A stretch of DNA of 64,000 nucleotides from Raphanus sativus (lineage: Eukaryota; Streptophyta; Magnoliopsida; Brassicales; Brassicaceae): assembly GCF_000801105.2 (NCBI RefSeq), contig NC_079515.1, positions 8,060,001-8,124,000 on the forward strand, written 5' to 3'. The position numbers and the translations under genes were made by a program. Below are positions 20,642 through 44,398 of this stretch, in pieces. A model generated the notes under the pieces. The model saw only the letters and a list, made by a program, of their open reading frames with translations. It searched no databases and was not told the DNA's origin. Each line of letters starts with the position of its first letter. Positions within the stretch are counted from its first letter, which is position 1.

Positions 20642-22458
20642 CTAGAGATTCCGAATCCGGTTCGGGTTAAGAGCACGGTAAGATACCGGTGGCGAAGCCT
20701 GACCGTCTAACTTTTCTTGCTCCGGTTTAATCCGGTGCGGAGCTTTGTCACAAGGCATATTAAAGAAAGACTTAGAGTTGGGACACTTCTGTTTCCGCAT
20801 GAAGAATTTTGCGCACTCCCATGGCGTTCTCTGATAAGGAAGATCTAGAATACAGTTCATGCGAACGTCTAGAATCTTCTTCTTGATAAGATCTCTACAT
20901 TTTGGACCAACCTGCGTGAAGTAATTGAACGAGAGTGAAACGTTCTTGAGAGCTGAGAGCTCGCACACGATCTCCGGTATGGTACCGTAGAACTTGTTTC
21001 TAGCCAAGTTGAGCTGTTCCATCTTGTCTAGGCACCCGAAAGAGTACGGAATCGGACCGGTTAGCTGGTTAAACTCGACGTCAAAAACCGTAGCTTGGTT
21101 AAGCTTCCCGATTTGGTATGGCAAGCAACCGGTTAACTTGTTATTTAAGAAAAGGACTTCTTGTAGGGACTTGATGTCACCTATGCTTTCGGGAATAGGA
21201 CCCGTGAATCTGCATCACGTCACATGAAAGTCCAAAGAAACCCCTTTAGATAATTAAATTCTATAGACATACATACCTAACCTACTCTCTGGTCTGTTCT
21301 TTCTAACAAAACAGACTAACTAACCTATTTAAATGAAGAATTTTGGATTACATATATAACGGTTAAACACAATACTCTTTCTTTTTCAAAAATATAAGAT
21401 TTTTGATTAAAATCCGAAATGTTTTCAAATTTTTGGTAATTTTAACTTTACTAAAAATGTGAAACCAATTATTCTTTATGGTGTATTTTCTAACTGGGTG
21501 AATGTATATTTTTAAGGTAGAAGTAAATTTCTTAGCATGTTTTACCTAAATATCATATATTTCGGAACATACTGTATGAAGTAGATTTTTGAAACCTTTT
21601 TAGATTTCATTCAATGAAAATAAAGAAAGAGTGAAGCTTTTGTGACCTGTTATTAGCGAATGTGAGGTAAAGAGCAGTGATGGATCCAAGATTCTCGGGC
21701 AGTCTCTGAACAAGATTGTTGTGGTTGATGAACAAGACGTCTAGGTTAAGATTGAAAACCTGAGGAGGAACACAACCGGAGAAAGAGTTGAATCTGAGAT
21801 CTAGGAACGTGAGATTTGTTGCTTTTAAGACAGAGCTTGGAAACTCTCCTGAGAGCTTGTTGTTGCTGAGATCAAGCTCGAATAGGTACTTCAAGTTGCC
21901 GACTTCGGGAACAGAACCCACGAAATTGTTGCTGTTTGCGTGGAAGATGGTGACTTCTTCTAACTTGTTGAGAAAGTTATCTAGCCTCAGTTGCTTGCCT
22001 CCCAAGTTAAACTGGTTGAACTGGATGCTCGCGAGTGCGAGATCGTTTGTTCCCGGGAACTTTGCGCACTCGAGTCCTATGTATTTATCCTCGGCGCAAA
22101 TATCGGTGCCTACCCATGTTTTGAGTATCTTCTTTGGATCATGTTCGACCAGGTTTTGGAACTTCTTGATTACTGGATACACTTTCTCTATTAATGGACT
22201 AGAGAATTGTGGCGGCGGTGGCGGTGGCGGTGGAGGAGGAGGACAGTGTTCTGGCTCTGGAGGGGGCGGTGGAGGACAGTCTTCTGGCCTCGGAGACGGC
22301 GCAGGAGAATAGTCATTGGAGCTTTCACCACCGCCGATGATGATTTCGAGAGCGTTTCTGTCGGTGATGTGGCTGTTTGCTGTGGCTAGTTTTGAAAGAA
22401 AGTGAAGAGACAGAAGCAAGAAAATGAAAGAAGAGGAGTGGTGATAATTTGAAGCCAT
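20642..22458 (-). CDS. Leucine-rich repeat protein with proline-rich N-terminus (At3g19320/At4g06744-like)
   Basis: Predicted extracellular or wall protein of 459 residues. Exon 1 is 22458-21647 and exon 2 is 21209-20642, joined in frame within an LRR (NR|FTGPIP). A signal peptide (about 1-27) precedes a proline-rich stretch with runs such as DCPPPPPP and HCPPPPPPPPPPP (about residues 50-85), reminiscent of extensins. A short helical linker carrying WVGTDICAEDKYIGLECAKF resembles an LRR N-cap with paired cysteines. About nine LRRs of plant type (LDLSNNKLSGEFPSS, FNQLTGPIPYSFGCL) and a basic Cys-containing tail ending NPNRIRNL follow. There is no membrane segment or kinase domain. The Arabidopsis homologue is described only as an LRR-family protein. 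Its 3' end faces the PLC-like gene across about 200 bases. Confidence 0.9.
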
Positions 22459-23225
22459 TGGTGACAGATTGATGCAAGCTTTGAGTATTGGCTTAGAGAT
22501 AGATTATATAGAAATAGTGGTTGCTAAAGTGAAGCTGGAGAAGTCAATGCGGATGTATTATTCTTGTTGGCAGCTTTAGAGAGCATATAATTAGTAAAAT
22601 CTAAAATTGAATTATTCGTTAGAATGAAAAAATATTAATGTAACTAAATGTCAATATTATAATGCCAAAGGGTGTTTGCATACATGTGTACCTTCGTTGG
22701 TGTTATCATTTTTCTTCCGTCAACGGCTATTCTAAATGATTGTCCTACTAATATTAAAAAAGGTGACATTATTCTTTAGTACGAGTGGCAAAAATATGAG
22801 TAATTAATATGTGCAGAAACTAAATTATTCACGTTAGGTGATTATAAAATTATAAACGTTAGGTTGAATCGAGCAGAGAACCAGTAACCAAGGTGATTAT
22901 AAAATTATAAACGTTAGGTTGAACCGGGCAGAGAACCAGTAACCAAATTGATTTTAAAATGACGTCAATCGGTTCAACGTGAATAACCAAACCCAAACCG
23001 AAAACTTTGGTTTGGTTCGTTTTGGTAGTAAGACTTTATCTTGAAACATCGTTAAATTCATTTTTTTACAAAAAAAAATAATTAAATTCACTTTTTCAAA
23101 TCTTTTCTTTTTAATATATAGAGTATATATGTGTATGTAATAATTTATTTTTTTTTGAAAATTTAATTTGTGATTTTATTTTATTATTAATAGAAATCTA
23201 TTGTAGAAAAAGCTTTATTTAACTA
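22459..23225. other. Intergenic spacer with a 55-bp tandem duplication
   Basis: Upstream of the LRR gene. A 55-base unit beginning GGTGATTATAAAATTATAAA is present twice in tandem (22837-22891 and 22892-22947) with two or three differences. After that the DNA is AT-rich (22960-23220). I see no gene. In Arabidopsis, At3g19330 and At3g19340 lie at this position; no trace is visible here. Confidence 0.55.
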
Positions 23226-23475
23226 ACGCGTGTTGGCATAGTAGTAAAGGAACTCCGGCTGGAGTGCCCGCCCTGGGTTCGATCCGCGTTGGCCACAAGA
23301 GAATTTACATGGGCTTCTCTCGCCCTCCAGACCACTTTGCGTAACCAGGAGCCCTTAAGTGGAGGCTTAAAAATTTCTGTAATGGCATGGGCATAAGCCC
23401 GGTGGGCTAGTCGATACTCAAAACTAGCCACAGCAATAATGTTTTGTAAAAATAAAAAGCAAAAAAAAAAATTGT
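23226..23475 (+). mobile_element. tRNA-derived SINE (Brassica type)
   Basis: An internal RNA polymerase III promoter is visible: A box TGGCATAGTAGTAAAGG (23234-23250) and B box GGTTCGATCC (23276-23285), 26 bases apart as in tRNA genes. A non-tRNA body and an A-rich tail (about 23448-23475) follow. The total of about 250 bases fits Brassicaceae SINEs. It is not a tRNA gene: no acceptor-stem pairing or anticodon arm is formed. It sits about 55 bases before the broken 5' end of the PAB fragment. Confidence 0.75.
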
Positions 23476-23531
23476 AAACTGGGGCCCCACAAGATGGGGG
23501 CCCAATCAAATGTTTCACATACATCTGCTCA

Positions 23532-24075
23532 AGCCCGGCTCTGCAAAAGGCTTTGGTTTTGTGCAGTATGACAATGAAGAATCAGCTCTCAAAGCCATTG
23601 GTTATTTGAACGGAATGCTTCTTAACGATGAGGCAGTATACGTTGGACCGTTTCTTCAGAAAGATTCTCCCCACGACAAGGGGTTCTTCACTGATATTTA
23701 CGTCAAGAATCTCTCCAAGTCATTGGATGATGAAGAGCTTGAGAAGATTTTTGGAGAGTTTGGACCGACGACGAACTGTCTGATCATAAGGGAAGGTGAA
23801 GTTCGTCAAGGAAAGTCTAGAGGCTATGGCTTTGTTAGCTTTGAAAAACCAGAGGATGCTGAGAAAGCTGTTTGAGGACAAGGAGTGGTTTGTCATGAAA
23901 TCGAAAATGACGTATAAGAATGGATATAATTTGAAGCGAGGTTTGAAATATTCTATCAACAAATCTCAGGGGTTGAACTACTTGTGTGTTAGGACTTAGG
24001 AAGCTGCATAAAAGTGTAACTGATGACACCCTCAAAGACTATTTCTCTCCCTATGGAACTATAATATCATGCAAG
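23532..24075 (+). pseudogene. 5'-truncated, frameshifted poly(A)-binding protein fragment (end of RRM2, RRM3, start of RRM4)
   Basis: The DNA encodes the RNP1 end of RRM2 (KGFGFVQYDNEESALKAI), the linker YVGPFLQKD, and RRM3 with RNP2 DIYVKNL and RNP1 RGYGFVSFEKPEDAEKAV. A deletion and frameshift at about 23873 follows (a stop appears). Similarity continues in another frame (EDKEWFV, KSQGLN), shifts again near 23990, and reaches RRM4 (SVTDDTLKDYF...TIISCK) up to a donor at 24075/24076. The order and wording match cytosolic plant PABs (PAB2/PAB8). The first RRM and part of RRM2 are missing, so no functional product is expected. The next PAB exon is at 29052, beyond a Helitron. In Arabidopsis, MPC lies at the matching place. 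Confidence 0.88.
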
Positions 24076-24549
24076 GTTTGTTTGTACATTTATAGAAAAT
24101 CTTGAGGATATATCTCTATATATTAAAAGAGATGCATTCGTAATTAATGCATTCACACTGTATTTTCTGAATTTGTTGACGTGTCGCATTCACAATCGTT
24201 TAATATTTAATGCGTTCACACACTAAGTTTTAAACTATACTCGAGACAATTTAATGTGTTTGCATTCTATTTTTTCAATAAGCTCTTTTGGTTCATACAT
24301 TTTTAACATTTGTAATAGTGAATTGAAATTATTTAAAGTTCTCTATGTACAACTACTGAATAATAGCATTTTAAAAAATATCATTAAGATTCGCATCAAC
24401 TAAAATGCTTGAGCGAGAATGTTTTAGAAATAGAACGTTTCATATTTAACTTGGTTTCTTGAAAAGAGACATGTGACATATACGGTGATGAGTAGGGTCC
24501 AACGCTATACTCTAAGTGTATAGATTGTTTCAAAATGTTACTTTTGGCA

Positions 24550-25003
24550 AATGTGATATCAAATAGCGTCTACACAACTCATGGAGGTCTCTTTCAAAGC
24601 TCTTCTCGGATCTATGAAGATAACACTTTACTATTGGGTTTTTTAGACGAATTTGACAAGATTGAGAGGAGGAGACAGGTTGGTGAGAATGATGATGATG
24701 ATGATGATGATGATGGGAATATAACTCTAAACCATGTTTTATGGTCGTGTCCATGGATGGCTGATGGTTTTAACGAGAGTGACTACAAGGGATGTCTTTG
24801 GGGAACTAATTGCACCGAGAGTTTTCTAAAACAATCAAAGTTAAAGGCAAGTGGTTAACTTCTAATGATGTTTTCGTATGTGATCATTTAAATTTGATGT
24901 GTTTTTTCTACCGTTTTAGATGATCATAAGATCACATGAAGGACCTGATGCAAGATCAGATCGAGAAGACATGGGAAACATGCTATGCGGATACTCACAT
25001 TAA
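24550..25003 (+). pseudogene. Captured fragment of a PP7-like Ser/Thr phosphatase gene
   Basis: Two exon-like pieces. The first (about 24550-24846) includes VYTTHGGLF, the conserved metal-site His motif of PPP phosphatases, then [13 protein letters not shown], an Asp run, NHVLWSCPW and [22 protein letters not shown] donor (AAG|GCAAGT, 24847) and a TTTTAG acceptor (24919) join it to MIIRSHEGPDARSDREDMGN, MLCGYS and a stop at 25001-25003. The layout matches the last third of plant PP7-type phosphatases (VFTTHGGLF ... WG.. FL ... IIR.HEGPD.R ... GYS). The catalytic N-terminal motifs and the end of the domain are absent. It lies wholly inside the Helitron, so gene capture is the simplest reading. 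No function is expected. Confidence 0.65.
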
Positions 25004-25740
25004 CACTAATCAAAATTTATATTATTAAACTCAATAAAAACCAATTTCTATGAGTATAAATATACAATTTTTTATATTATGTCTAAGTTCAAACAACAAA
25101 AATAATAATAGATTATCTTATATAAAATACAAAATCTTAAAATGTCATCAACATTGTTTGTACAAACAATACAAATAATATTGGATGTCCTTTTTCTTAA
25201 ACTATTATTTAGAATTTATTTGATTTTCCAAGCATTTAGAAACTTAAAAATGAAACCATTGGTTCGACATAAAAACTGTCGAAAATTCATATAACATGAA
25301 ACCAAACAAATATAATAGTTTTAGGTTTATCACCGAAAAATAAAAAACCTCGATCACTTCAACCGAACAAAACAAAATAAATATGGATTTAGAATGGTAT
25401 TTATATTTTAGGAGGTTTAAAAAAATAACGTAATACCGAACGAATATCCAGATTAAACAGATATAATATTTTTATCTTAAAAAGTAGGGCTGAACAAAAT
25501 ATCTGGAACTGAAGAACCAAGCCGAAACTGAACCGAAATTCAAGGTCCCGAACTCGATCAGACAAGGGTAAATAACCGAATGGTTCCTAAACTGATGTGT
25601 CCGAAGAACCGGTACTCAACCTGATCCGAACCGAGAACCGAATGAGTATCCGAAGATTTCCGAAATGTAAATATATATTTAAAATATTATTTATAATTAT
25701 ATGTATAATTATTTTAAAAATTAAAATCAAAATTATATAT

Positions 25741-28591
25741 GAGTTTATTGGCCAAATAGCCATATTTCAGAGTGAAATTAAGTGAATAACTTTGATTTTG
25801 ACATAATTAAGTGTCTGACTTTTTACTCACATTTTCTCCGGTTCTACCCCTTCTTATAAACGGTTGCCAGTTGCTATTCTTATAGTAAGGAACGTGTTTG
25901 GTTTTGTGACATATAATTATACAGAGTGTTTAATCTATCTCTAATTAATACAGAAGATGAAAGCATACAAAAGATGAAAGAGAATGCTGAATGAGTGAAT
26001 AACAGTTGTACGCGTTACACAATTTATGTTACCATAACAGACAAATAAAGTTATTGGAATTGTTATTCTATATGGAAAATAGTATAGATCTCAAAATAAA
26101 CTGTATTTTATCAACTAAGAACTAAACACTGTATGAAAATGTAAATCATAAACTAAAAATATATAATTTCTTAAACTGTGTTTACACGATCCAATTTTTA
26201 AATTAAACATACACAATGTAAATCCAAAACATCTTTAAATTAAACATACACAATTTCTTAAACTGTGTTTAGACGAAACATGCATTACTATTCTATATGA
26301 CAAAATAGTATAACTCAAGAAATAAAGGCAAATAGAATGGAAATACGAAAAAAATCCCAAATGATAATCTCAAGCGTACATAAACTAACCCCTAACAATT
26401 AAGCACTAAACCCTACACAGAAATATAAACTCTAATCCAATGTAACTCCAAACTTTGAATGAAGACCATAAACTAATCAGTAAACCACACACAATAATAT
26501 AAACGACACCCTATAAACTAATCACTAAACCCTAGACAAAAATATGAACCTTAATCTAATGTCAAGTTTAATCTTCCATAAACTAAACATTGTCCACTAA
26601 TCACGCAAACTAATAGAAAATATAAACCCTTATCCAATGTCAAACCAATCTTACATAAACTAAACATAAGTTTCGAGCTGATAGTAAAAATGCATTTTCA
26701 TTCTATATGAGGCATATAGAATACATAAAAATAAAATGTAACTGCAATGTAACGATAATGTACAATGTATCTCAAATGTTGATATGAGTATGCCTTCATG
26801 GAATGTGGTAATGCCTGTCTCAATGTCAACACAATCGTACATAAATTAAACCCTACATGGAAATATAAACCCTAATCCAATGGCAACCTCAATCTTACAT
26901 AAACTAAACACTAGCCACTAATCACTAAACCATACATGGAAATATAAACCCTAATCCAATGTCAACCCCAATCTTTCATAAACTATGAAAATATGAAATA
27001 TATACTAGTACCAAGTGGTAAGCAACAGTAAGTGATAGTCCATTGCATGGTATAAACCAGAATATTGAGAATGTACATTTCCATTCTATGTATAGTATGT
27101 AGAATAGAAAGATGGTAATTTTAGTTGAATTCGAAAGAGCATATTCTTATTTTTTGCAACATTTGAAACGTCTATCATTCAGTGGAAGTAGGTAATGATT
27201 TTCCAGAAAATAAACACCTATCCAATCATCACTAAACCCTATACGGAAATATAAACCCTAACCCAAGTAGTAAAATACGTAAATTTAAATACATGATGAA
27301 TAAAGAAGCTAAAGAATGTGATATTAAACGTTCCAATTTATAGCAGGTATGGAAATAAGATGAATTTCCATTTTGCATGGTCCAAATAGAATAGAAACAT
27401 GTAATAGGTATGGCCCTCCACATACAATACTTTGTGAAACTATGATGCGTTCAGCCTCGCCAAGTTCTCATCCTATAATGCACCCTTGATCACCCCAATC
27501 AAGCGGAGGTTGAAATAGTTGTTAAATAATTTCTTTCCAGTGGATTTAAAATCTGTCACAAACAATCTACTCGGAAGATCTAAATCGTCCATGTCAAACC
27601 TGAAGAATGAAGGTAAGAGGTAAACACGGCTAAGACAAAGTATTATATTAAACAAGTAGATATGAATTTTTATAGTGCAAACAAGTAGAATTAAAGCCAA
27701 AATAGTGGAGTATTAAACCATTCAATTCAATCTCAAGTACAATAGTTTTACATGTAGTTATTCTGTACCATTTTGAATAGAATAGGAATGAAAGATCTCA
27801 TACTATGTCTAAACCCAGAAAACTATACCATTTCGAGTAGAATAGAAGAGGAATGAAAGACTGCATATTATGTCAACACACAGACAAACCTATCGATTGC
27901 ATATGTTATTCCATACAACAAACTATATTACTATACTATGTACTATATATATCCACTAAAAATCACAATTCAAATTTAAGAAAGACTAAGAACAATCGGG
28001 GAAACCCCATCCCCAAATCACCTCAACCCTAAATCAATTGGCGAACTTCGTCACTGAAAACAGATACGACAACGAGGCTATAGATTTACCAAAAGATTAT
28101 CCAAGTTTCGACTATATTGCAAATAGGAAATAAAACAGCATCAGAAGAAGAGAATCGAAAGTAAAATCCAAAACATACCGTAATTGAGAGATCTGAATCA
28201 ACAGTGGTAATTGGAATAGATACAGATTCACACTATTTCCTGCTGCAACTGTAACGCTGTCGTCTGGCTGAAAATTCTAGAAGAGTAGTAAAGCGCGCAT
28301 TTGCAACCAGTGAAGAAGAAAAAAAATATGATTAATCCAACGAAGGTGACGATGTGGAGCAACTCGATATCGAAGATGAAGATAACTAAAAAGAAAAGAT
28401 GTGAAAACAGTTAAGCCACGATTTACTTTTACAAATTGTAATTTATAAAAAAATTCTTCAGGTTACGCCGGTTACAGGAAGGGGTAATACTGTATTTATA
28501 TATATAGATAACGGCGTGTATTAGAAAAGTTAGGGATATTGGTTAGACAGTGAATTAGACGTTTTTTCATGGTCATACGACCAAATTTCCC
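25741..28591. mobile_element. Mutator-like element (2851 bp) with 9-bp target duplication
   Basis: ATTATATAT occurs directly at both borders (25732-25740 and 28592-28600), the 9-bp duplication typical of Mutator elements. The termini are imperfect inverted repeats: left GAGTTTATTGGCCAAATAGC, right (reverse complement) GGGAAATTTGGTCGTATGAC, aligning without gaps at 13 of the first 23 positions. No transposase is recognisable. From about 26350 to 27260 the body carries a degenerate repeat with the phrase ATAAACCCTAATCCAATGTC in at least eight copies. It is nested in the Helitron. Confidence 0.6.
26350..27260. repeat. Degenerate tandem repeat with AAACCCTAATCCAATGTCAA units
   Basis: The phrases ATATAAACCCTAATCCAATG, TCTTACATAAACTAAACA and CACTAATCACTAAACC recur with spacings of roughly 60-130 bases (for example near 26405, 26545, 26622, 26868, 26945 and 27248). 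It is a diverged array internal to the Mutator-like element. The CCCTAA words resemble plant telomere units but are not in tandem. Confidence 0.5.
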
Positions 28592-29051
28592 ATTATATAT
28601 TAAATATATTAATTATTTTGTGTATTTTCAGATAAAATATGATAGTTTGTATAGAAATACTCAAAAAACCGTGTCCAATGAGTAATTTTAGTTTTTTTTG
28701 GTATATTTGGGTAGTTTGGATAGAAAATACCCGAACCGAATCAGGTAATATGGTTAATTTGAGTATGAACCAGTTTCAGATATATTAGTTATTTAGTTAT
28801 TTTAAGTTTTTTTACATCAAAACCGAATCTACTCGAACTCGGGAGGACTCGACTCGAACCTGACTCGGAATTTTGTAATATCCAAATGATACTTAATTTT
28901 CAAACTTGAGAAATCTGGTATCCGAAAAAACGACGGATACCTGAATATTCATGCCTATTAAAAAGATAACAAAATCAATAATTTCATTCTTCCGTGAAAG
29001 ACACGGGTTATTACCTAATATTCTAGGTATAATACGTGTGGGTGTGGATAG

Positions 29052-29898
29052 GTCATGCGAGACTCTAGTGAAGTGAGTAGAGGATCAGGTTTTGTTGCGT
29101 TTTCGAAACCTGAGGAAGCTTCTAAAGCTGTAAGTTTCTTAGATACACACACATGCATGATGCATGCACATGTAAAATGCATCACGTTACTTGAAATGGA
29201 GAAACTAATTAGTGGTTTTGTTTTCATGTATTCAGATGGAGGAGATTAATGGAAAAATGAAGATAAGAAAACAAGTTTACATGGATCTAGCTATATCACT
29301 TGCAAATGCAACTCCAGACCAGCAGAAAACCGTAAGTAAATATGTTAAAAAAAAATTAAGTAAATATGTTTTGTTTAACTTCATAACTATATACTTGTCT
29401 CTTTGTTTTTGTTGTGTTATTCTTCTAAGAAATGAAATATGATTTGTACAGAAGCTAGGTGAGAATCTTTACCCAATGGTGGAGCAATTTGAGCCAGAGT
29501 CAGCAGCAAAGATCACAGGAATGCTTCTTGAAATGGACCAAACCAAAGTTCTTCACTTCCTTGAATCCTTAGCTGCTCTCGAATCCAAAGTCGCAGAGGC
29601 AATGGAGATCCTGAGGATTGTAAAAGAGCAGCAGCAACAATATAGAGGTGGGTCTGAATCTGCGAGTGACTCAAAACCCTCTCTAAGCACTGACTCAAGA
29701 CCCTCTCTAAGTTCAAGTTTTATAAGCCCAAAGCTCAAGTCTCTAGCGTGTGAACAGAGGTGGGTCTGCATCTGCGAGTGGCTCAAAACCCTCTTTAAGC
29801 TCAAGTTTTATAAGCCCAAAGCCCAAGTCACTAGCGCGTGTGAACAGTCGACTATCGATTGGCGAGAGGTCGGTCATGTTGCTGACCTACAGATTTGA
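29052..29898 (+). CDS. PAB C-terminal (MPC-like) gene: half RRM4 plus PABC/MLLE domain
   Basis: Three exons, 29052-29129, 29236-29331 and 29452-29898, splice in phase into one open frame. From the first ATG (29055) this gives 205 residues. Exon 1 is the RNP1 half of RRM4 (SRGSGFVAFSKPEEASKA). Exon 2 holds EINGKMK and then, with the usual Pro/Gln-rich linker missing, LANATPDQQKT. Exon 3 holds the PABC peptide-binding domain (LGENLYPMVEQFEPESAAKI, TGMLLEMDQTKVLHFLE), including the KITGMLLE signature that binds PAM2 peptides. The position equals Arabidopsis At3g19350 (MPC, an imprinted gene encoding only the PAB C-terminus). The tail after the MLLE domain comes from a tandem duplication read in two frames. 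It could be a living short gene or a pseudogene whose frame has not yet broken. Upstream PAB exons are broken, so transcription must start in or near the Helitron end. Confidence 0.65.
29646..29850 (+). repeat. Tandem duplication in the MPC-like last exon
   Basis: A unit starting GAGGTGGGTCTGAATCTGCG (about 29646) and running through AAGTTTTATAAGCCCAAAGC to GTGTGAACAG recurs at about 29757-29850, with an internal 20-base difference. The two copies are translated in different frames, giving first a Ser-rich and then a Trp/Lys-rich tail. Confidence 0.7.
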
Positions 29899-30349
29899 TT
29901 CCTTAGAAGAAGTCGGGGAATGATGTGGTTTCAGGAACAAGTCTCAATATCTGTGGTTGATAGTGCTAATCTCCCTAAATCATTTGCAACATAGTAGCAA
30001 ACATTGAATTCTATAATGAAAATACTTCATATTCCTCACAAAATTTGGCGAGTATGTGTATAAACTATACATACCAAAGAAGAAGAAAAGGAGATTATGT
30101 AAAACATTTTTTTTTGCAACCTAAAGTTTCAAACTTTCAATGGTATGATATCTATTTGCTAACTTGGTGTTATAGGATCTAACTAAATAATTTAACATAT
30201 ATTCATGTTACATTTACTTCGGATAATGTTGATAAATATCTTTCAAATATCAGATTAGTTTAAACAATTTACTAAAAGCATAAAGATTAATGATTTTATA
30301 CAAATTAGCATGATTAGATATTGTTGCCAAATCTCTTTCGTATATCAGA
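29899..30349. other. Spacer downstream of the MPC-like gene
   Basis: AT-rich DNA, presumably the 3' UTR and flank of the MPC-like gene. No gene or clear repeat is seen. Confidence 0.4.
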
Positions 30350-32118
30350 TCTATACTATTAAAGCAGAATTCTTCGTAGGATTCTTCCATTGATTTTCTA
30401 AAAAATTACAATGCTATGTCACTAATAAATTATATATTATAATTTGTTTCTACCTAAATTTTTTTGAACGATTTTTCTACCTAAATCTAAACAAACGCAT
30501 TATAGAATTTGGAAAGAAATGATTACCATATATTCTATTCCTTGCTCTGTTATAACTCTAACCATAAATTGTATACTGTCAATTATGTCTTTAATGTTTT
30601 GCAGTATAAAATCAAAACATTTTTTTTTTTGAAAAATATAGAAAATCAAGACGTTTTGCAGTAGTATATAATTTGTAAAATATTCTAATTTTAAAATCTT
30701 TTGTGCAACCTAAATATGAATATTGGTTTAGCCTCTTAATATATTACCTTTTCCGAAATACTATAATAGCATTCATAATTTTAGATATTTTCAATTTTTT
30801 TTTTAATTTACGAGTTTCAAACTTGTGCAACAATCAAAACCATTTAATACCGGTTTGTAAATAGAATAATATTTACGATGTATCTAATTTCAATATATAC
30901 AAAAGGTTTGTAAATCAACTTTAATAAATACTAAAAACTCAATGTGACTAAAAGATTTTTATTCTAAACAATATTATTTTCAGAATAGATACATGTCTCC
31001 AAACCATATCAAAATATGCATGTAACTACACATATGTTTCTGTTAAAAATTTGTCTTTCTCAAAAAAAAAAAACTACACATATGTTAATCATTAATCATA
31101 TCATCATTACACACAATTGTTTCATCAATATACTGAGAGGACCAGATATTTATATACCTACATTATTATAACGAACTAATTCACTCCACAAATATATTTT
31201 TCATCGAAATGAAATGTTCAACACATACTTTGTTGAAATTTTATTTGCATATCATTGTTCTTCCATTTATATAAATTAACAATCAAACTTATAACTTAGT
31301 TAATTTAAGATTTGATCTTAAGTTAGAAATCTTTTTATCTGAAATATACTATTGTTATTTTGTACGAGTTATTTTAAAAGGTAAGCATAATATTTATTAA
31401 AATGCAAGATAGGTTGAACCAACATAGCAATCATTTTATTATAACAAGAAATTTTCTCATTTCAATTTTGAATCATTAAAAATGTAAAATGAGTTAAATA
31501 AGATAATTATTCTATTTTGATCTTCATATAATTAAATATTTATATTTTAATTTGATTATAAAATAATTAAACATAAATACATTTTACAAATGAATATATT
31601 GTCCCATGTAATTTTAGTATTATAAAACAACAGTATATATATTAAATTGCAACAATATTTTCTTAAAAATACTACATTTATTTTTAAACTATGATCTTTT
31701 GTGGTAGCATAGATTATTTATTAACATAAATTAAGTTTATATATATTTTTCGGTTTGTACTGAAAGTGACACTTCAAATGCCAAACAATGAATATATTTG
31801 ACATTTGAAAATAATAATTTGGCTTCGATTAGTAAACTTATTATTGAAAAGCTAAATTTTAAAAACTGTAATTGTAATAGACGATTTTCATTTAATTTTT
31901 AATTATATTGTGTAAAAATCAAAAGTGTTACAAAATAATATAAATCAATATGTATTCAAATTCTCATCAAAATCAAAATTTTGTTCTATTGAAAAATTAA
32001 ATATATAATTTAAAAAATAAAAAAAATGTGGATTATGTAAAACATTTAAATTATCATCAATTAATTTGTTTTCAAACAAAAAATAATCCCGCGCTTTTAA
32101 AGCGCGGGTCAAATCTAG
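30350..32118 (+). mobile_element. Non-autonomous Helitron, 1769 bp
   Basis: The 5' end TCTATACTATTAAAGCAGAA begins at 30350 after A. The 3' end has a perfect 10-bp stem hairpin (CCCGCGCTTT T AAAGCGCGGG, 32088-32108) followed by TCAAATCTAG ending at 32118 and then T. The interior is AT-rich without coding capacity. Confidence 0.75.
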
Positions 32119-32921
32119 TTTGTTTTATAAAATTACTACTAAGGATTTGATTGGCAGAAAATTAGCATAAACATTATATTCGTTATTATCCTATCAACAC
32201 TTCTCACAAAAACATTTACAATATATTAATGTTCTCCAAATATTTTAACTTTTTAAAAAGAACAATATTTCACAATAAAAATATAATATAATTTATATAA
32301 TTACTAAGGATTTGATTGGCAGAAAATTAACTTTTTAAAAATAACAATATTTCATTATTTTTAATAAAAACATAAAAGAATATATATTTATATATTATAA
32401 AATAAACATATCTATATTACTTACAAAAAAAAATTATATGTCATATATTATTTTTATGATAATATTATATATGAATCATTTACTGCTCTTCCAATAAATA
32501 ATAATGATAATTTATACATAAATTATATATAATTGATTTATTTTAGTTAATAATATCAAAAAATATTTTTATATCCAAAAATAAATTTTATCTTTTAAAA
32601 TAAATTTTACATTGATTTTTCAAAGATAATAATATTTCACATTTAAAAATTAATTAAATTTATATAATTAAATAAGATTCATTATTTTTAATAAAATGTA
32701 TTATTAATATAGATTATAATTTAATATATATATATATATATATATTATTTATAAATATATTATATAGTAACTTTTATGATAATTTTAAACTTGTATAATG
32801 TTATTGCTCTACCAATTAATTTATTCAAAATTTTAAGGAGGGCATACACTTTCTGCAAGATACTTCTTTTACGACATAATAGTATTGCTTCTTCAATAAA
32901 TGTATCAATTGAGGCCTAAGA
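32119..32921. other. AT-rich intergenic DNA
   Basis: The phrase ACTAAGGATTTGATTGGCAG AAAATTA occurs twice (about 32139 and 32304). A (TA)n run lies at about 32728-32747. No gene is supported. Confidence 0.4.
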
Positions 32922-33621
32922 CTATGTATATTGGTATAGAAGATTCAACGCCCTAATTTTTACTTTTTACATTCCAAATTATCTTCTTTTTCTTCCACCT
33001 AACAATTCAACACTCATTCATTTTTTATACTCTATAACAGTTTTGTTTAATAAACTTTAACATCCAATCTCATTTTTTATATTAATAAAAAATCTCAATT
33101 AGTTTAATTAAAATTTTAATGAATAAAATATATATTTTTAATTTTAGTTTCACTTTTATAAATAACAAAATAGAAAATATAGATATTCCTTAAATATTTA
33201 TAAGATTCATATTACTGAAAAAGTTTTAAAGAAATATTTAAAAATATAATCAAGAATTTAAGGTTATAATGATAGAAAATATACTATAAATATAAGTTAT
33301 TTTCGTATCCAAATCAAATGAACCAAATCTCTACTTATAGAGTTTAAAAAGTTATAAATTTTGATATATAAAAAATAAATTTACAAAATAATTAGTTGTA
33401 AATAATTGTTGTTTAATAATTGAGATAAAAAATAAATCCAAAATATATACAACCCAATAATAAAGTAACGCATGTGAAAAACGGGTCCCATTCTTTTTTT
33501 ATTCAACGGTTGAATTTTTTTGACCTGCTGAGTCCCAATCAGCATTAAACATCCCTATTGTTTTGTCTCTTGTTTTTTCAACTGTTGAATTTTTTTTTTC
33601 AACAGGCTCAATGTACATAGC
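32922..33621. mobile_element. Small TIR element (MITE-like), about 700 bp
   Basis: The left end CTATGTATATTGG and the reverse complement of the right end CTATGTACATTGA match at most positions. CCTAA lies just outside both ends, but the duplication length is uncertain. The body is AT-rich with no coding capacity. A diverged relative follows at about 33770-34480: both share a stretch like AACAC(C/T)CAT TTTTATTTTCTACA and TTTTGTTTAA. Confidence 0.4.
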
Positions 33622-33769
33622 CTAAATAAATAGTCAAAGAATAGGATCTTTCTTGTCCTATCACCTATTATTTATTGATACTATCTTTAAACTATACTTG
33701 TGGGTTGTGTGTGTATAATTATCTTTTGTTTCTGATTTTGTTTTGTTGATTAAAAACTCTGAACACAGT

Positions 33770-34061
33770 AGCGTGTGAGGGTAAACAAACAGTGGTGTGC
33801 CTACATTGTTTAGATATTTACAACACTTTATTTTCACTTCACATCATCTTCTATTTCCTCCATATCATCTTTTCTTTTTCCACATCACAGTTTAACACCC
33901 ATTTAATTTTTATTTTCTACAATGGTTTTGTTTAAAAAAAATTACAAAACCCTATCCCACTAATAGCAAAAATATAGTAAAAATGAGTTTTTTCTGTCTC
34001 CAAATGAAAAAAACAAGTTTATATTTACAGAGTATAGAAAATGATGAAGTTTGATATAAAA

Positions 34062-34111
<50 letters not shown>

Positions 34112-34480
34112 TAATCATATGCAATAATTGAGATAAAAAAACAAAGTTAGAAAAAATGAGCATCCAATCAATTTCTTACACTTGTCATCATCCACATATT
34201 TACATAGAATATAAACTGAGAAACATACATAATATTTTGGTCTGTGTTTAAAAAAAAAAATAATATTTTGGTCCAATCAACATTTGCCACGTCATACAAG
34301 AAGAGCACATATTTTTTATCAATGCTATTGATAAGTGTTAATACTGAATTTGCCACATCATATATATTTTACTTTTACAATAAACCATTGTAATCTTATC
34401 AGCTGTTGATTGTAATCTTATCAACTGTTGTTAATATTTATCAAAAGTTGATAAATCTCCCATTGTAAGTAGTCTAAGAA
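33770..34480. repeat. Diverged relative of the 32922 element, with a (TA)n microsatellite
   Basis: The internal sequence (TTCCACATCACAGTTTAACA, then CCATTTAATTTTTATTTTCT) parallels 32990-33060. The ends resemble each other only weakly as inverted repeats, so its borders are approximate. It contains a pure (TA)n run at 34073-34107. Confidence 0.35.
34073..34107. repeat. (TA)n microsatellite
   Basis: Uninterrupted TA repeat of about 17 units. Confidence 0.9.
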
Positions 34481-35968
34481 CCTACAAACATTTAAAGTAT
34501 TTGCAATAAAACCTACTGCACAAGGAACATGAGATTCTTGTAGCCTTAAACGATGAAAGGGGACGAAAGAAGTGTTTGTTCAAGTGGAGCGACTGCAAAA
34601 AGTAATAATTGAATTAATGGAGACTGGATCAATGGTTTATCGTTTATTGTGTAATATTTCAACCGACCATGGTAATGGATTTTCTGGTTCGTGAGTCCTT
34701 CTAAATAAGAATTAGCCAATCCATGAGTACACCATGAACAACAAGATATATACATCATTTTGTGGTAACCTTTGATTACATAGGTGGTTTGCATCTTCAA
34801 CTTTTAATAAATTATTTAGAAATCAATTAATACTATTAAAACAAAATTACAACATATATTACTAACTATATATCATTAAATATAGCTTAAATATGGTAAG
34901 GTTTAAATAAGTAAACATAAACAAATATTGAGTTGATTACATTAAATAACATTTTTGTCATTTTTTACAATGAGAAACACTTCTCACATTTGACACACAT
35001 TTTTAGTGGGACCTAGACGTTTTTTGACAAATTTGTCTTTAATGAGAAGAACGAGATGTTTGTAGACATGGATGGATACATGAATGTTTGTGGACATAGA
35101 TACATAAATATTTGTGGAGAGAGTATGATATATCTCCTTTTTATGCATATCATTTCTTTACATCCTAACTAACAATTCTAACTATAATTAACTTTCAATT
35201 TGTTTTTTACTCTCAAAATTAATTATTTATAATTATAGCATACATATGAGGTATGGATGGAACAATTATGGATAAATGAACTCTCAGGAGAAAATTGTGG
35301 ATGATGTATTAAAAATAAGTCAGTTTTGGACTACGAGTTCTGGATGAGAATTGTGGATGGCTGACTTGTAGTTGTGGATGAAGACTTGTAGTTGTTGATG
35401 AAGACTTGTGGACGATTTGAGTTGCAGATCTGGATGACTGACTTGTAGTTGTGATCACGGGTAAGTCTCCAACAGATCTGTGTACAGCGGTTTGAAAGAT
35501 GAGATATAATGAGTTGGAACTGGAACTCGATCGTGGTGGTGGTGTTGGCGGTGCAAGTAATGGTGGGAGTAATGGTGGAAACATGGTTAATGGGTTTCTT
35601 ATTCCCAGAGACTATGGTGAAGAAGAAACTCTTAAAAAGTCTCAGCTAACCACCATCGTGTTAAGATATTCATGTCCACAACTAGTCTATAATTTTACTA
35701 TTCACGGTTGGTGTTCACCTTTTAACTTTGTTTACATGTTTATATATATTATATATATATATATGAAAATAGATCTTAAAAGATAGAGAAATTAATATAT
35801 AATTTATTATGATAATTATTTTTGTTTAATATATTTTAGAATTTGAGATAAAAACAAATGAAAAATAAAGTGGAATAAGAATAGGAGAGAGATAGCTAAA
35901 AGAGAATGGGACAATGAAACATGGGACAAGAAACATGTTCATTTCATTGTCTTGTAGTATAATTAAAA
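34481..35968. other. Intergenic DNA with short tandem repeats at 35330-35460
   Basis: Words GACTTGTAGTTGTGGATGA and close variants recur four or five times between about 35360 and 35455. The flanking GTTTGTGGACATAGATACAT-type words recur at 35055-35115. The open frame at 35499-35786 is Gly-rich and short and matches no family I know. No host gene is supported. Confidence 0.45.
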
Positions 35969-37230
35969 CTAGATTTTGATCTGCGCTTCGAAAGCGCGGA
36001 TATTTTTTTTTTTACTTTTATGAAATATATTATTTGTTTGTAATTATTGAATGTATTTATCTTAGTAAAATTTTTTTATAGTAAATTCGACACATAGAGT
36101 ATCTCTGGTAAACCATGTGTTTTTCTGGCTTTATTTTATTCTCTCTCCAATCAACATATTTATTTTGCTTGTTGTTTAAATAAATGATTTAGAACGCAAT
36201 TGTACAATACTTTTACATAGATATTTTATTTAAATAATGTGACATATTTCTATATTAATTAAATATTTACATTTTAATTTAAATTTGTATACAAATCAAC
36301 ATATTTGTTTAGTTTGTTGTTAAAATAAATGATTTTGAATCCAAATGTACAGTATCTTTATATTGATTTTTTCAGTTAATATAATTTTTTAAATATATTT
36401 ATTTCAACTGAACCAACTAATATTTTGTTAAATTGGCCACTGAAACATATTTTTATACATCGATATTTATTTTTCATAATTAGTGTTATATATTTAGATG
36501 TATCATAGTATAACTAACGATATTCAAAAGACAACTGAATTAGGTTGTATGGCTATTTTTGTTATAAATATCCAAACCCGTTTTAGATACCCGAAAAGAA
36601 CAACATGTACCTAAATGGACAGATAATGTTCATGTCTAACTGATTTTATAAATTAATTAAAAAACTATTTCTATGTATTTGGCTAAATTAAATGAAATAG
36701 AAAGAGTCTTTTCATCAAGTAAAATAATTATATGGAGTGAAAAATTAAGTGGCAATAAATGTAGCACATTTTAATTATTTTGATTTAAGTTATTATTTTA
36801 TTCACAAAAACATATCTTTGAACTATATTTTTGAGTACGTAATTTTCCACCGATTGAAACTAAAATAAAAATATTTTATTAAATAAAAACTAAACCAAAC
36901 GTTTAATCATATGAAAAACCTAATTATTTAACATTTTTGATTTTATAATTGGCACAAAGCTAATATTGATTAATTAATAAATAAAAATATGCACGATTAT
37001 TATTATGGTAATATAATTAATGATTTAAGTTATTATTAAGATAACATAATTAATTAAATTGTTAAATTAAGTGAAATATGGAAACACAATTAATAGATAC
37101 TACTATTCATGTATCCGAACAAATTTAATTAAGACCACTGTTCAAGTTTCCAAACACACCAAAATTTTTTAATCATTCTATTCAAGTTTCCAAACACTCC
37201 GATTTTGTACTTCAGATTTAATAATATAGA
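35969..37230 (-). mobile_element. Non-autonomous Helitron, 1262 bp
   Basis: On the minus strand the 3' end is a hairpin of GCGCTTTCGAAGCGC (about 35982-35997) followed by AGATCAAAATCTAG, ending at 35969. The 5' end TCTATATTATTAAATC starts at 37230, flanked by A. Size and right-end sequence match the Helitron at about 53017-60555 once its Copia insertion is removed. Confidence 0.75.
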
Positions 37231-37282
37231 TGTGAAAAAGTGTCGTTAGGTGTAAAAATTCAGAAATATTTCTGTTAGTTAT

Positions 37283-38078
37283 GGAAAAAAATGTTAAACA
37301 AATCCTCAACTTTGCGATTTGGACCATTATAATCTACAGCTTTCAAAATAACCACAAAAATCACATTTATTATCAATTATCTAAAAAACCTCTAACTTTT
37401 CGTTGAATGGATCAATTTAAACCCGACGTTAATTACACTAAAAAAATATTTAAACTCAGTTAATTCTCGTCGTTAACCAAAACGATGCCGTATTTTGTCG
37501 ATTAAAGAAACACTTCTCCTCTCATTATTTCTCAAATCGATTTGGGGGTTTTCTCTCAATCACGAACCCTAAATCACGAATCACCACCAAAAATCTTCGA
37601 CGAACCAGATCGTAGAGAGAAGAGATGGGTAATCAAAAGAATAAGAAGTCTCGACAAGGGAAACTCGGTGGTGCCAGCTCTGTAGCCCTATGTCAGCGGC
37701 GTCGGGACAATCTCGTGGCGAGCTTCTCGGAGAATCATCCAAAGCCTTTGGGTCCAAAGTGGATCGAAAATAAAAAGTGGAGTCGACGATGTAGGTAAGA
37801 TGAAAAAGAGCAAAACAGATGCTCTCGGCGGGGAAGAAAAAAAAAAGAAGTGTTTTTTAATTGATAAATATGGCGTCATTTTGGTTAACGAAGAGAACTA
37901 TCTTAGTTTAAATGTTCTGTCAGTGTAATTAACGTCGGGTTTAAATTGATCTATTCAAAGAAAAGTTATAAGTATTTTAGATAACTGATAATAAATGTGT
38001 TATTTTTGTGATTATTTTGAAAGTTTGGGATTATAATGGTCCAAATCGTAAAGTTGAGGATTTGTTTAACATTTTTCC
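37283..38078. mobile_element. Mutator-type element with long terminal inverted repeats, 796 bp
   Basis: The 9-bp duplication GTTAGTTAT flanks the element (37274-37282 and 38079-38087). The termini are inverted repeats of about 220-240 bp, starting GGAAAAA(AA)TGTTAAACAA. They share AATCCTCAACTTT, GATTTGGACCATTATAATC and AAACCCGACGTTAATTACAC. The centre (about 37500-37860) contains a small frame, ATG at 37625, encoding 57 basic residues (MGNQKNKKSRQGKLGG...). It matches no transposase. The structure fits a long-TIR non-autonomous MULE. Confidence 0.8.
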
Positions 38079-38087
38079 GTTAGTTAT

Positions 38088-39568
38088 GTCTTGATTAAAG
38101 TTTTCTATATCAGTTTTCATTTAATGCAATCTAAAAAAATATATTGTAGAAGTTAGTGCTAACAACTAGGGATGTTAAACACAGATATCGTTTTGATTAT
38201 TTTTTCGGTATTTAGGTATTTTGGTTTGTAAAAATATATTAAAATATATTTACTCTGGTTTGGTTTAGTTTATGTACCATCGGTTTTCGATTATTTGGTT
38301 TATACCATAAAATAATAAATTTATTTATCTTTAAATTTTTTATGAATTTGAATTTTATATAATTAGATATCTGCTTTTACATAACATGAAGATATTTTGG
38401 GTGTTAAATAACTTAATTTTCTTTTTCTTTTACTATTTTTAAAAAGTTTGTAAACATGTTAAGTTAATAATTATAATATTTTATAGAATAAAATAATAAA
38501 AATACATATTATATAATAACTTAATATTAGCACACATATTTGTTACAAAAAGGTAAAAATTTATGTATTATTTAATTTGATCAAAATGAAACATAACTCT
38601 TAACTTAAAATAAAATATTCAATCAATAAAATCAACATTTAAATATGAAAATCATATCAATAAAATATATTATGTGTATATTCCTAATGATCTTATATAA
38701 TTTACATATATAGTTATACTACTGTATTTTAATTGATCAGTTTATTCGGTTTATATATTAATTCATATCTATATACCACGGTTTTTTTATAAAATAAAAT
38801 CTATTTGATATATTCGGTATTACCAAATCAAACCACTTTCTCTATTTTGGTTCAGTTCGATTTTAATTTGTTTCAGTTTTACCGTAACAACTTTTTTCAT
38901 ATGTATTAGACATTATATATCAATTTTGTAATAAGGTTTACCAAAGAATATGTGATGTTAAATAAACGAATATGGAATGTTCGATTATTGATTACCAATT
39001 TTGTTATAAGGTTTACACAAAATTTATGTAATTTATCTTGTTTATATAAAATAGCATTAAATAAAACTAGTTTAACCAATGAAAAAGATACGCTATTTTG
39101 TGATTGGTTAAAATTTTTAAGTGACATTAAATTTTGTATAAAAAAAATGAGAACATCACTTATTTTGAAATAAATTAAAATCTTAAAAAACCAGTTAAAG
39201 TGATACAGAGGGAGTGCATAACTAAAACTATGTATAAACACGATGTACATTAACATTAACATTTGTAAAAACGTCAACACATTAAATAAATATTCACAAC
39301 ACTTACATATTATATGATTGATCTAATTTATTAAGCTTAAGATACAAATGAATAATTATGCGTTGATCATTAATGTTTTTATTCAAATATATATGTTGGA
39401 GCAGAAAGGAAAAATTATCAAATTTTCATATTAAAATAATGTTGCATATTCAAACAAAATTTTTAAAAACATTACAAATGTTTGTAAATCATAAATATTC
39501 TGCTAAAACAATACTAAGTAATTTTAGATAAAATCTAGAGTATATAGATCCAACATTTCTTAAAAATC
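38088..39568. other. AT-rich intergenic DNA with repeat fragments
   Basis: From about 38160 to 38880 the DNA is rich in TTCGGTTT/ATTTTGGTT words of the same type as other CCGAAC-rich repeats in this window. Near 39205-39220, ACAGAGGGAGTG resembles one end of a Stowaway-type MITE, but I could not pair it. No gene is seen. Confidence 0.4.
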
Positions 39569-39879
39569 AATAGTGTTGTGAATGTGTATATTATTAATGT
39601 CGAATATGAACTCCTTATATAGGGAGTTACAATGTCTGAAATCTTAATGGGCCGGTTACAAGATGGGCCACTAATGGGCCAAAGCCTAGTAAGTATCTTT
39701 TGGATAAACATCCATCTGAACCAGTCGGTTCATAACACTTCCCCTGGATGTTGAATCCATCTTGAGTTCGCCAGATACCAAATCCTTTTTGGGCTCGTGA
39801 TACACTTTACCAATTACTTGGTGTTGCCTCATTAAAACCTTACCAGGAAAACCCGGTGGGACAAAACATGGTGAAAGAA

Positions 39880-42800
39880 AAAAAGTACAACATGTATCAC
39901 TTCCCCTGATTTGTACCTCCGTATATGCTCTTGAGGTTAGCGCATGAGTAGACTGGTGGGAATTTTATGGACGCCAAGTCTCTGAGCTGGTCTTCATAAT
40001 TGCACGTCCTGGACTGATAGGAAGGTCTCATGGACGTGGTGCTGATGTAGACATGGTGAAGAAGCCGGTTGACATGTCTTTGGTTGGACTTGTACTTCTT
40101 CATATTTGTTTTCCAACGTGTGCATACTGCTTGTTTGAGAACTATCCATGTATGGATCCAATTTATAACCTGTATCATAATCAAACTAAAACCAAGCAAA
40201 CACATCTTTGGGTTTGGTTAGTATAAAATAATCTCAAACATTAGTAAAAGGATATTTCAATCCTGTCCCATTGCCTTTATATTTAGAAATAACATAAGCT
40301 TAGTTCAATGCTTATGTTCGGATGTGTGTAACAAACACATTAAGGCAAGGCGCCAATGGCACCTTTGGCAAGGGACATGTATGGCTTTATTTCCAATGCC
40401 TCATGGTCTGATCATTTAACAACATATATGATCATATTACACTTTGGAGTAATTTGGACATATACTATTAAGTTTAGACTTAACTATGGTTTCACTTATG
40501 TGTATTTACATCTGGATGTGGCTTGAGTCTTTTCTAGACCAAAGACATATGTCTCTGTCCAATTTAGGATCAAAGGACCCGTGACCTATCTCAGATGGCC
40601 TCGTGACCATGTTCCTTCTTAGAACAAAGTGAGTCAGTACTTGGACCAAGTGAAAACCATTCGACCATAAGTCTTGCATTGGATTGTATACAGACTAAGG
40701 CACAACTTTCTTGTCGTCCTTATGACCAAATGGGTCTATGTCCAGATATAGGGACTATGGGACTATGTTACCATACAGTGGGGCGAGCCATAGACTTTAT
40801 AGTAAGCATTTAGGGTCAATGAACCTTATAGGCTTTACATAATGGTTCATGCCTATCGTTAATCTATGCCTTATTCATGCACAAGGATTTCATCTTTAAG
40901 TATATTTAAGATACTTACTTTGTAGTCCCAAACAATCTTTGTTTGTCCCAAAACTTAATCTTTCCCAAAATATTCATTTCAATGCTTTCTTTAGATAGTC
41001 TTTTGGGAAGTGTCTCCAGAGGTTCCTAGGATATTTTCTTTAGATCAAAATATTCATGTATACTCTGGTTCTCGAGAACTTTGTTGCTTTAGACAACTCT
41101 ATATCCTCTGAGACTTATATATATTATCCAGTGGACTTATATAATCAGGCGGTTTACATCCTTGAACCACAAGTATAAGTTTTCTTATGTGCCAGACTTA
41201 TCGAGGAATCTCAATGTTTGTTGCATCCACCATAAGGAGCTTATCTCCTTTTAATTGATTCCTGGTCTTTGTGATAATCCTTGTGCACATGACCATGCTT
41301 AATATTATGCATATGGTCGTGCCTTACATTAAGTGTATCTCGCCATAGAAATTTCTTTCACAAAGATTGTTTTATGTCCAACTGGTTTAACATCTAGAGG
41401 TGTCCGTACTTATGGGACATATCCTCTCTTAACTCCACGTCTACTTTCTTATTTGATCTTAATCTCATATGTTTGAATGCATTCATATGGACGTGGGTTT
41501 CATGATCCTCATTGATCTCATGATCTCAAGTGCTACATTGCGCATATTATATCATTAGTTTCGAGTACTCGTCTGTTCCTTTGTGTCCTAGACATGACAT
41601 CTTATTGAGGTTTTATTATGTCCTTCAATACCCTGAAGCTTGGCGTCCCAAGCATCATTAGGTACCTTAGGTACAACCATATCTTATGGTTTCCTCATCC
41701 GTGGCCACAGCTTTTAGGTTTGTCCATCTTTGGATCGACTATGTCTAGGAGTCCCTCATCCACGGTTTCATTTGCACCTTTCTATATTTATCTGAGGGAT
41801 CTTATCTTTAGAACATATTAATCTAACTTGTTTAGATTCAGTAGCAACTTGATTGTGTTCTATTGAACATCAAATCTTACTTGGTGCATTCATAGCTGGT
41901 AGAAATGACTTAGTCATTCTATTCGGGTCAGGAATCTGGCAATTGTATTAAGCTAGCTTCTGTATAAACTTTATGGACTTCTAGAAATCATTCTAGAGTC
42001 TGAGGATCTTGCCAATATAAGGATGTTTTGATTCCATATAATTTTCTATTATCCAGCTTCCCCTTAATGTTGGATGTTCGGATTCACTGAGGTGACTATC
42101 CGTGTACCTAGGCTTTAAACAACTTGTCCGTGGATAGCTCAAGGTATTTAGAAACGTGGGGAACTTATATAAAAACATATCCAACATCTATTCCCATCCT
42201 CTCATCTTATATTTCTGTGGTGGAGCGATAGAATTTATAAGTGGCACTTCTTTATGTGCTAAGATGAGGTGTGTCTGGCCTTTGACCCGTTTCAATCAAT
42301 AGGATGGGTATCAATATTCATTTCTGTGTGTGTATGTCCATGTAGAATAAAATGTGGTTTTTTTTATCCTTCCCCCATGGACATATCATACATTTTTAAA
42401 ATACTTTTAGAATGTGAATTATTTAAAGATATGTAGTCTTTTTAGGCGATTTTTTCTTTCTGTTCTTGTCCTTTCTTTATGAATATCCGTGTCCTCATTG
42501 AGTCATGAGATGTTTTTCTACATTCTCTATGATCATATAATGTTAATCAAACCCTTTGGGACGTGAGCACTTTAATCTATATTCACTTGGACGTTTTGAA
42601 GTAACATGTTTTCCTTTATCCTTAGTTTAGTCCGAATGGGATAAGACTATCTTTGTTCTTGTGAACTCTTTGATGTTTCAATATTGTGTATGTCCATGTT
42701 ACACGGAGTGATTAACACTTACCCCCATGGACATATATACTTTTAGACGTGAGTTCACTTAGCTTTTACCAAGACTTGTAGTCTTTGCCATCATACAATC

Positions 42801-44090: not shown

Positions 44091-44174
44091 CTGAAATATT
44101 TAGTGTTTCATAAGCTAGAACTTAGTAATATGTTCTGAGGAACTGATTTCAAAAGTTTTCAAGAAAATTCTATA

Positions 44175-44398
44175 AAAAGAAACTTTCTAAAAGTAGAAAC
44201 TTTCTAGAAATGGAAACTTCCTAGAAATGGAAACTTCCTAGAAATGGAAACTTTTAAAAATGGAAACTTTATAAAAATGGAAACTTTCTAAAAATAGAAA
44301 CTTTCTAGAAATGGAAACTTTCTACAGATGATAACTTTCTAAAAATAGAAATTTTTTAGAAATGGAAACTTTCTAAAAAAAAAGAAACTTTCTATCTA
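44175..44398. repeat. 18-bp minisatellite in the old Copia leader
   Basis: About 13 copies of a unit like GAAACTTTCTAAAAATG, with variants CTAGAAATG and CTAAAAATA, run from 44175 to 44398. They lie between the gag start and the 5' LTR. Confidence 0.85.

What the first reader, a model, noticed from the sequence alone, without database searches (positions are those of the whole stretch)
23532..29898. Fossil of a full poly(A)-binding protein gene behind an MPC-like locus: PAB8 ohnolog caught in decay
Seen: in one orientation and in the right order lie the end of RRM2, all of RRM3, both halves of RRM4 and the PABC domain. The first part has two frameshifts and is cut at its 5' end. The last three exons splice into one open frame of 205 residues (half RRM4 plus PABC, Pro/Gln linker deleted). 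Known: Arabidopsis MPC (At3g19350) at this syntenic spot encodes only the PAB C-terminus and is imprinted. The duplicate block on chromosome 1 carries PAB8 at the equivalent place between an LRR gene and PUB26. Inference: MPC was born by 5' degeneration of a PAB8 whole-genome duplicate, and this genome still shows the intermediate.
Basis: partly seen in the sequence, partly recalled or inferred. Interest (0 to 1): 0.88.

Follow-up and report, generated by a model that had tools for sequence, protein, structure and literature searches.

The report
Broken poly(A)-binding protein gene, tail open
In a plant that looks like a member of the cabbage family, one gene for a poly(A)-binding protein has lost its front, is broken in its middle and swollen by mobile DNA, yet its last exons still read as a short protein like the imprinted Arabidopsis MPC, whose origin from such a gene was already published.

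Summary
One strand carries, in order, the end of RRM2, most of RRM3, RRM4 and the PABC (MLLE) domain of one PABP gene. The two RRM4 halves belong together: joined across a 4,976-nt intron they match positions 291-357 of the PABP model, 77.6 bits. Frameshift-aware alignment to recalled references finds two frameshifts and no stop. The last three exons are in phase and give 205 residues from the RRM4 Met. Corrections: the intron holds mobile DNA, including a 2,851-nt MULE-like stretch between perfect 9-nt repeats; the PAB homology begins where a hAT-like end stops; the last 49 residues are read out of register between tandem copies. That MPC is a truncated alpha-WGD partner of PAB8 is already published (PMC4122942); new is the 5' remnant. 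Comparison with PAB2/4/8 rests on recalled sequences: RRM segments group with PAB8 (92, 89), PABC does not resolve. The lesions look younger than the duplication, which fits independent decay as well as a preserved intermediate.

The parts
23528..23543 (-). Mobile-element-like end (hAT-like by recalled resemblance) that abuts the PAB homology; 5' truncation point
   Evidence: CAGAGCCGGGCTTGAG on the minus strand, no second copy in the window within 3 mismatches; no convincing target duplication
23544..23872 (+). Exon A, open part: end of RRM2 and most of RRM3
   Evidence: TIGR01628 128-236, 108.6 bits; RRM_1 E 5.1e-28 for 23510-23872; no stop, one 3-residue deletion and one 3-residue insertion against the recalled references
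23873..24075 (+). Exon A, broken part: RRM3 end, linker and first half of RRM4, with frameshifts near 23861-23870 and 23982
   Evidence: frameshift-aware alignment; the 28-aa piece at 23995-24075 matches the PABP model, E 7.2e-05, there at the RRM2 positions 94-119; joined to exon B it moves to RRM4, 291-357
24076..29051 (+). Intron of 4,976 nt within RRM4 (GT-AG), swollen by mobile DNA
   Evidence: junction; joining its two sides gives one RRM4 match of 77.6 bits
25741..28591 (.). MULE-like stretch without transposase, 2,851 nt, flanked by ATTATATAT at 25732-25740 and 28592-28600
   Evidence: the 9-mer occurs twice on the plus strand of 24001-29100, at these two places; weak subterminal inverted repeat I17; no transposase domain in six frames of 24080-29041
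29052..29129 (+). Exon B: second half of RRM4; ATG at 29055 starts the 205-aa frame
29236..29331 (+). Exon C: end of RRM4 fused to the start of PABC, Pro/Gln linker missing
   Evidence: model positions 358-526 missing; splice sites GT-AG
29452..29898 (+). Exon D: rest of PABC (MLLE) and a long C-terminal tail
   Evidence: MLLE E 9.6e-16 for 29476-29895; PABC 2dyd E 1.5e-24 for the spliced protein
29644..29845 (+). Tandem duplication in the tail (copies 29644-29755 and from 29756); a 2-nt indel puts copy 2 out of register
   Evidence: which copy carries the change is not known

Best explanation
It is the remnant of one class II, PAB8-type poly(A)-binding protein gene at the MPC locus of a Brassicaceae genome, most likely the alpha-WGD partner of PAB8. 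Shown here: one gene; RRM1 to mid-RRM2 absent from the window; RRM3/RRM4 broken by two frameshifts; the RRM4 intron 5 kb long with a MULE-like stretch; the linker missing with the frame kept; the last three exons open with GT-AG splice sites. Inferred: a full PABP can no longer be made. If transcription starts inside the swollen intron, translation from the RRM4 methionine gives a 205-residue PABC-only protein like MPC, which would bind PAM2-motif partners without binding RNA and so compete with whole PABPs. Whether that product is made is open (I give it about 45%); otherwise it is a plain pseudogene.
For: Collinear matches to one PABP model and the split RRM4 rejoined across a GT-AG intron; RRM parts nearest PAB8 (alignment score 466 against 390 for PAB2 and 378 for PAB4; bootstrap 92 and 89; recalled references); flanking ABF4-like, SPARK, LRR, FPP and U-box/ARM genes (that this is the order of the MPC block is recalled); MPC/PAB8 published as an alpha-WGD pair with MPC covering only the 3' quarter (PMC4122942); 205-aa frame and splice sites; the stretch KITGMLLEMDQT kept against wheat and human PABC.
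Against: PABC does not group with PAB8 alone. At sites where recalled PAB8 differs from PAB2 = PAB4 the RRM2/3 part agrees with PAB8 at 7, with PAB2/4 at 4, with neither at 4 of 15, a modest lead. Class I and III PABs were not compared. PABC is not visibly better preserved than the RRM part: 20 of 73 against 38 of 106 residues differ from recalled PAB8 (Fisher P 0.26), whereas PAB2 and PAB8 differ at 8 of 73 against 31 of 109 (P 0.005). 8 of 38 PABC sites shared by wheat and human are changed, one proline-to-leucine among them. The tail carries a register change. No expression data; no Brassicaceae relative could be fetched.
Confidence: 0.72

Rival explanations
1. Independent decay (about when, not exclusive with the origin above). 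The ancestor of this locus still coded a whole, fast-evolving PABP after the split from Arabidopsis; 5' loss happened separately here and in the MPC line. What is seen is then a recent pseudogene (perhaps one of several copies after a later polyploidy), not a preserved stage of MPC's birth.
For: No stop in 110 codons of RRM2/RRM3; under neutrality at an assumed 0.35 substitutions per site since the duplication the chance is 0.01-0.04, at 0.2 it is 0.08-0.15 (rates assumed). The two indels before the first frameshift are whole codons. The 19 changes at 63 sites shared by recalled PAB2, PAB4 and PAB8 are conservative (mean BLOSUM +0.84 against -0.40 for random missense, P 0.00075). The 9-nt repeats around the MULE-like stretch are still identical.
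Against: At 0.1 substitutions per site a stop-free frame is unremarkable (0.28-0.39). Sites invariant in four references are changed at 8 of 41, hardly less than variable sites take new residues, 16 of 66, so constraint was weak. The Arabidopsis references are recalled.
Confidence: 0.45
2. Plain pseudogene, nothing made: the 3' exons are open only because too little time has passed.
For: Out-of-register tail, changed conserved PABC residues, long intron and absent 5' part. The single-sequence fold of exon D found MLLE only weakly (best Foldseek E 0.055, rmsd 8.0, none of 12 matches at E 0.001 or better; inconclusive).
Against: GT-AG splice sites and 205 open codons; stop-free chance for the 363 nt from ATG 29055 to 29643 is 0.003-0.007 at 0.35 and 0.04-0.06 at 0.2 substitutions per site (assumed rates); Arabidopsis MPC is expressed in siliques (PMC4122942), though another seed RNA-seq study had only 6 and 30 reads and no SNP for it (PMC3157454).
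Confidence: 0.4
3. Two unrelated insertions: the RRM fragment was copied in from another PAB gene beside a separate MPC-like gene.
For: A 5-kb stretch with mobile DNA lies between them.
Against: RRM4 is split exactly at a GT-AG boundary and rejoins to one RRM4 match; same strand, right order; the RRM2/3 and RRM4 segments both have PAB8 as nearest of the three PABs compared.
Confidence: 0.04

Closest known systems
Arabidopsis MPC (At3g19350)
   Same: Similar surroundings (Arabidopsis gene order recalled); C-terminal PABC part is what stays open; alpha-WGD partner of PAB8 according to PMC4122942
PAB8 (At1g49760) and other class II plant PABPs
   Same: Domain order; RRM segments nearest PAB8 (recalled references)
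   Different: RRM1 and most of RRM2 missing, two frameshifts, linker missing, lengthened C-terminus; intron positions were not compared, the figures of PMC4252990 are not held
PAB1 and PAB6 of Arabidopsis (PABPs lacking domains, PMC4252990, passages)
   Same: PABP family members that have lost domains
   Different: They lack PABC (PAB1 also RRM1) and keep RRMs; here the RRM side is lost

Membership tests
Poly(A)-binding protein (PABP) gene | Four RRMs followed by a PABC/MLLE domain in one gene | tested here: not met
   RRM1 and the start of RRM2 absent from the window, RRM3/RRM4 frameshifted; so a broken PABP gene, not a working one
Poly(A)-binding protein (PABP) gene | Collinear homology to the PABP model | tested here: met
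   TIGR01628 128-236, 291-357, 527-595; each piece below the model's curated cut-off of 497.1 bits, which is for a whole protein
PAB8 lineage | All segments group with PAB8 rather than PAB2/PAB4 | tested here: inconclusive
   RRM2/3 92, RRM4 89; PABC unresolved (PAB8+PAB2 59; PAB4 left out); Arabidopsis references recalled, unverified; class I and III not compared
MPC locus | Lies between the LRR and FPP/PUB25 genes of the alpha-WGD block | tested here: met
   LRR domains in 21607-22458 (-), FPP in 49646-51091 (+), U-box and ARM_PUB in 61036-62313 (-); the Arabidopsis order is recalled, not fetched
MPC | Open PABC-only reading frame without a whole RNA-binding domain | tested here: met
   205 aa from ATG 29055, half of RRM4 plus PABC
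MPC | Maternal (imprinted) expression | not testable with these tools
   no RNA or methylation data
MPC | Sequence orthology with At3g19350 | not tested
   the MPC sequence could not be fetched
Mutator-like (MULE) element in the intron | 9-nt target duplication and terminal inverted repeats | tested here: inconclusive
   9-nt repeat met; inverted repeat only weak and subterminal (19 nt, 84%), terminal similarity by eye; no transposase

The most novel reading that the evidence does not exclude
Parallel birth of PABC-only genes: the PAB8 duplicate stayed a whole, fast-evolving PABP well after the radiation of Brassicaceae, and was reduced to a bare PABC more than once, here with mobile DNA swelling the RRM4 intron and lying where a new start of transcription would be needed. 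Truncation and imprinting would then be separable steps that can be ordered across living species.
Probability: 0.2. Interest if true: 0.62.

Novelty: new member of a known kind. Interest (0 to 1): 0.36.

Why it matters
MPC was among the imprinted genes found in Arabidopsis before the sequencing studies of 2011 and is a whole-genome duplicate that kept only its 3' quarter (PMC4122942). A relative that still shows the RRM exons, broken but readable, lets one ask whether loss of the RNA-binding half came before or after imprinting and whether it happened once. That is useful to specialists but does not change the published account of MPC's origin.

Tried and rejected
Two-insertion origin: rejected because RRM4 rejoins at an intron boundary. 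Coding gene inside the 5-kb intron: six-frame Pfam scan of 24080-29041 gave one sub-threshold metallophosphatase-like match (E 0.0016, 19.3 bits against a cut-off of 21.5). Missing 5' part elsewhere in the window: not found. Target duplication of the hAT-like element: the 8-mer right of its end occurs at four places in the window, and no second such end was found. Other genes in 30000-39992 and 44150-49142: no Pfam match at E 0.01 in six frames; 10-20 kb was not scanned. ARAGORN and Rfam (gathering) on the window: nothing. Relatives in viral and prokaryote collections: none confirmed. Structure of part of exon D (29452-29643) from one sequence: pLDDT 85, pTM 0.50, MLLE chains only as weak first matches; inconclusive. 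A first conservativeness test (P 0.0078) took the best of three references and so favours the result; I use only the second one. In one search three gap columns had been counted as differences (41 of 109); one search corrects this to 38 of 106.

Papers: passages and section 15 of PMC4122942; passages and section 11 of PMC4252990; passages of PMC5790229, PMC3174879, PMC3157454 and PMC7968328; the others only as search listings. Tiwari et al. 2008 (MPC) is not held; I know it only through citing papers and recall. That a 5' PAB remnant at the MPC locus is not in print is not claimed: my answered searches show none, but cover open-licence papers only.

Full report
What is there. The window has 32.6% GC and, by the resemblance of its genes to recalled Arabidopsis proteins, comes from a Brassicaceae plant; no call names the species. 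Around the finding lie an ABF4-like bZIP frame (5508-6632; Pfam bZIP below its cut-off, name by recall), a SPARK domain (9419-10033, minus) followed by kinase-like frames read by eye (8748-9062, 7519-7947), LRR domains (21607-22458, minus), a filament-like plant protein (49646-51094, plus), a Copia element (54301-59235, minus) and a U-box/ARM gene of the PUB25/26 type (61036-62313, minus). From memory this is the order of the MPC region of Arabidopsis chromosome 3; I could not fetch that region.

The PAB gene. The open frame 23510-23872 matches RRM_1 and, of NCBIfam models, the PABP model best. The piece from 23540 covers model positions 128-236; the RRM4 halves joined cover 291-357; exons B-D have their best stretch at 527-595. 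The linker, 358-526, is missing; the 43 residues between the frameshifts give no match on their own and are placed only by the alignment to recalled PABs. The RRM4 halves meet at GCAAG|GT...TAG|GTCATG, an intron of 4,976 nt (24076-29051). The other two introns (106 and 120 nt) have GT-AG ends, and the exons are in phase 0. So this is one gene, not two loci side by side.

Damage. Frameshift-aware alignment to three recalled references gives two frameshifts each time, at 23861 or 23870 (with about seven codons lost) and at 23982, and no stop. The 5' part is absent from the window. The PAB homology begins next to CTCAAGCCCGGCTCTG, which resembles, from memory, the end of a hAT-like element; a mate or target duplication was not found. 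The intron holds a 2,851-nt stretch flanked by a perfect 9-nt repeat, as Mutator-like elements leave, with a weak subterminal inverted repeat. In exon D a tandem duplication lengthens the tail. The copies differ by a 2-nt indel, so that copy 2 is read out of register; in the other register the frame would end ...SLEEVGE. Which copy changed is not known.

Origin. With recalled Arabidopsis sequences the RRM2/3 segment groups with PAB8 at 92 and RRM4 at 89; PABC falls next to PAB8 plus PAB2 without resolution. In RRM2/3 the window shares 69 of 107 residues with PAB8, 63 with PAB2 and 57 with PAB4; at 15 sites where PAB8 differs from PAB2 = PAB4 it agrees with PAB8 at 7, with the others at 4, with neither at 4; in RRM4 it is 3 of 3 for PAB8. 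Class I and III PABs were not compared. PMC4122942 (passages and section 15) states that MPC and PAB8 are an alpha-WGD pair, that MPC is a quarter as long and aligns only at the 3' end, that its Ka/Ks is about twice that of PAB8, and repeats the idea that MPC competes for PAM2 partners.

Timing. If the RRM part had been free of selection since the duplication, a stop-free stretch of 110 codons would be unlikely (0.01-0.04 at an assumed 0.35 substitutions per site), less so at 0.2 (0.08-0.15), and ordinary at 0.1 (0.28-0.39). Of 63 sites shared by the three recalled PABs 19 are changed, and these changes are more conservative than random missense (P 0.00075). Against this, sites invariant in four references are changed at 8 of 41, hardly less than new residues appear at variable sites, 16 of 66; between the frameshifts it is 8 of 14 against 10 of 27, in RRM4 10 of 32 against 9 of 38. 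I read this as weak constraint for a good part of the time and a recent break. That is compatible with an intermediate only if MPC's own truncation was late; otherwise truncation happened more than once.

Does the 3' part work? For: splice sites, 205 codons, the MLLE signature. Against: PABC has not visibly been spared relative to the RRMs (20 of 73 against 38 of 106 differences from recalled PAB8, P 0.26), 8 of 38 sites common to wheat and human are changed, and the tail is out of register. The AlphaFold model of 29452-29643 from one sequence showed one long last helix where other MLLE domains have a proline, but its confidence (pTM 0.50) and its match to MLLE structures (E 0.055, rmsd 8.0) are too poor to decide.

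Verdict. A real and well-seen feature; a new member of a known kind, with a known origin.

Noticed in passing
window 24499-24847 (+): Metallophosphatase-like fragment, sub-threshold Pfam match (E 0.0016), in the swollen intron and overlapping an ATG-repeat run; perhaps a gene piece carried by a mobile element.
   Followed up: partly
window 23220-23440: tRNA-derived SINE-like stretch (A and B box by eye) just upstream of the truncation point; ARAGORN finds no tRNA in the window.
   Followed up: no
window 26353-27266: Diverged, dispersed repeats (TAAACCCTA...AATATAAACCCTAATCCAATG) inside the MULE-like stretch.
   Followed up: no
window 54301-59235 (-): Copia retrotransposon with long gag and pol frames between the FPP and PUB25/26-like genes; LTRs not examined.
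   Followed up: no
window 43200-44090 (-): 296-aa frame that looks by eye like a Copia gag (CCHC-like NCGIKNHSGQRC) but has no Pfam match at E 0.001.
   Followed up: no
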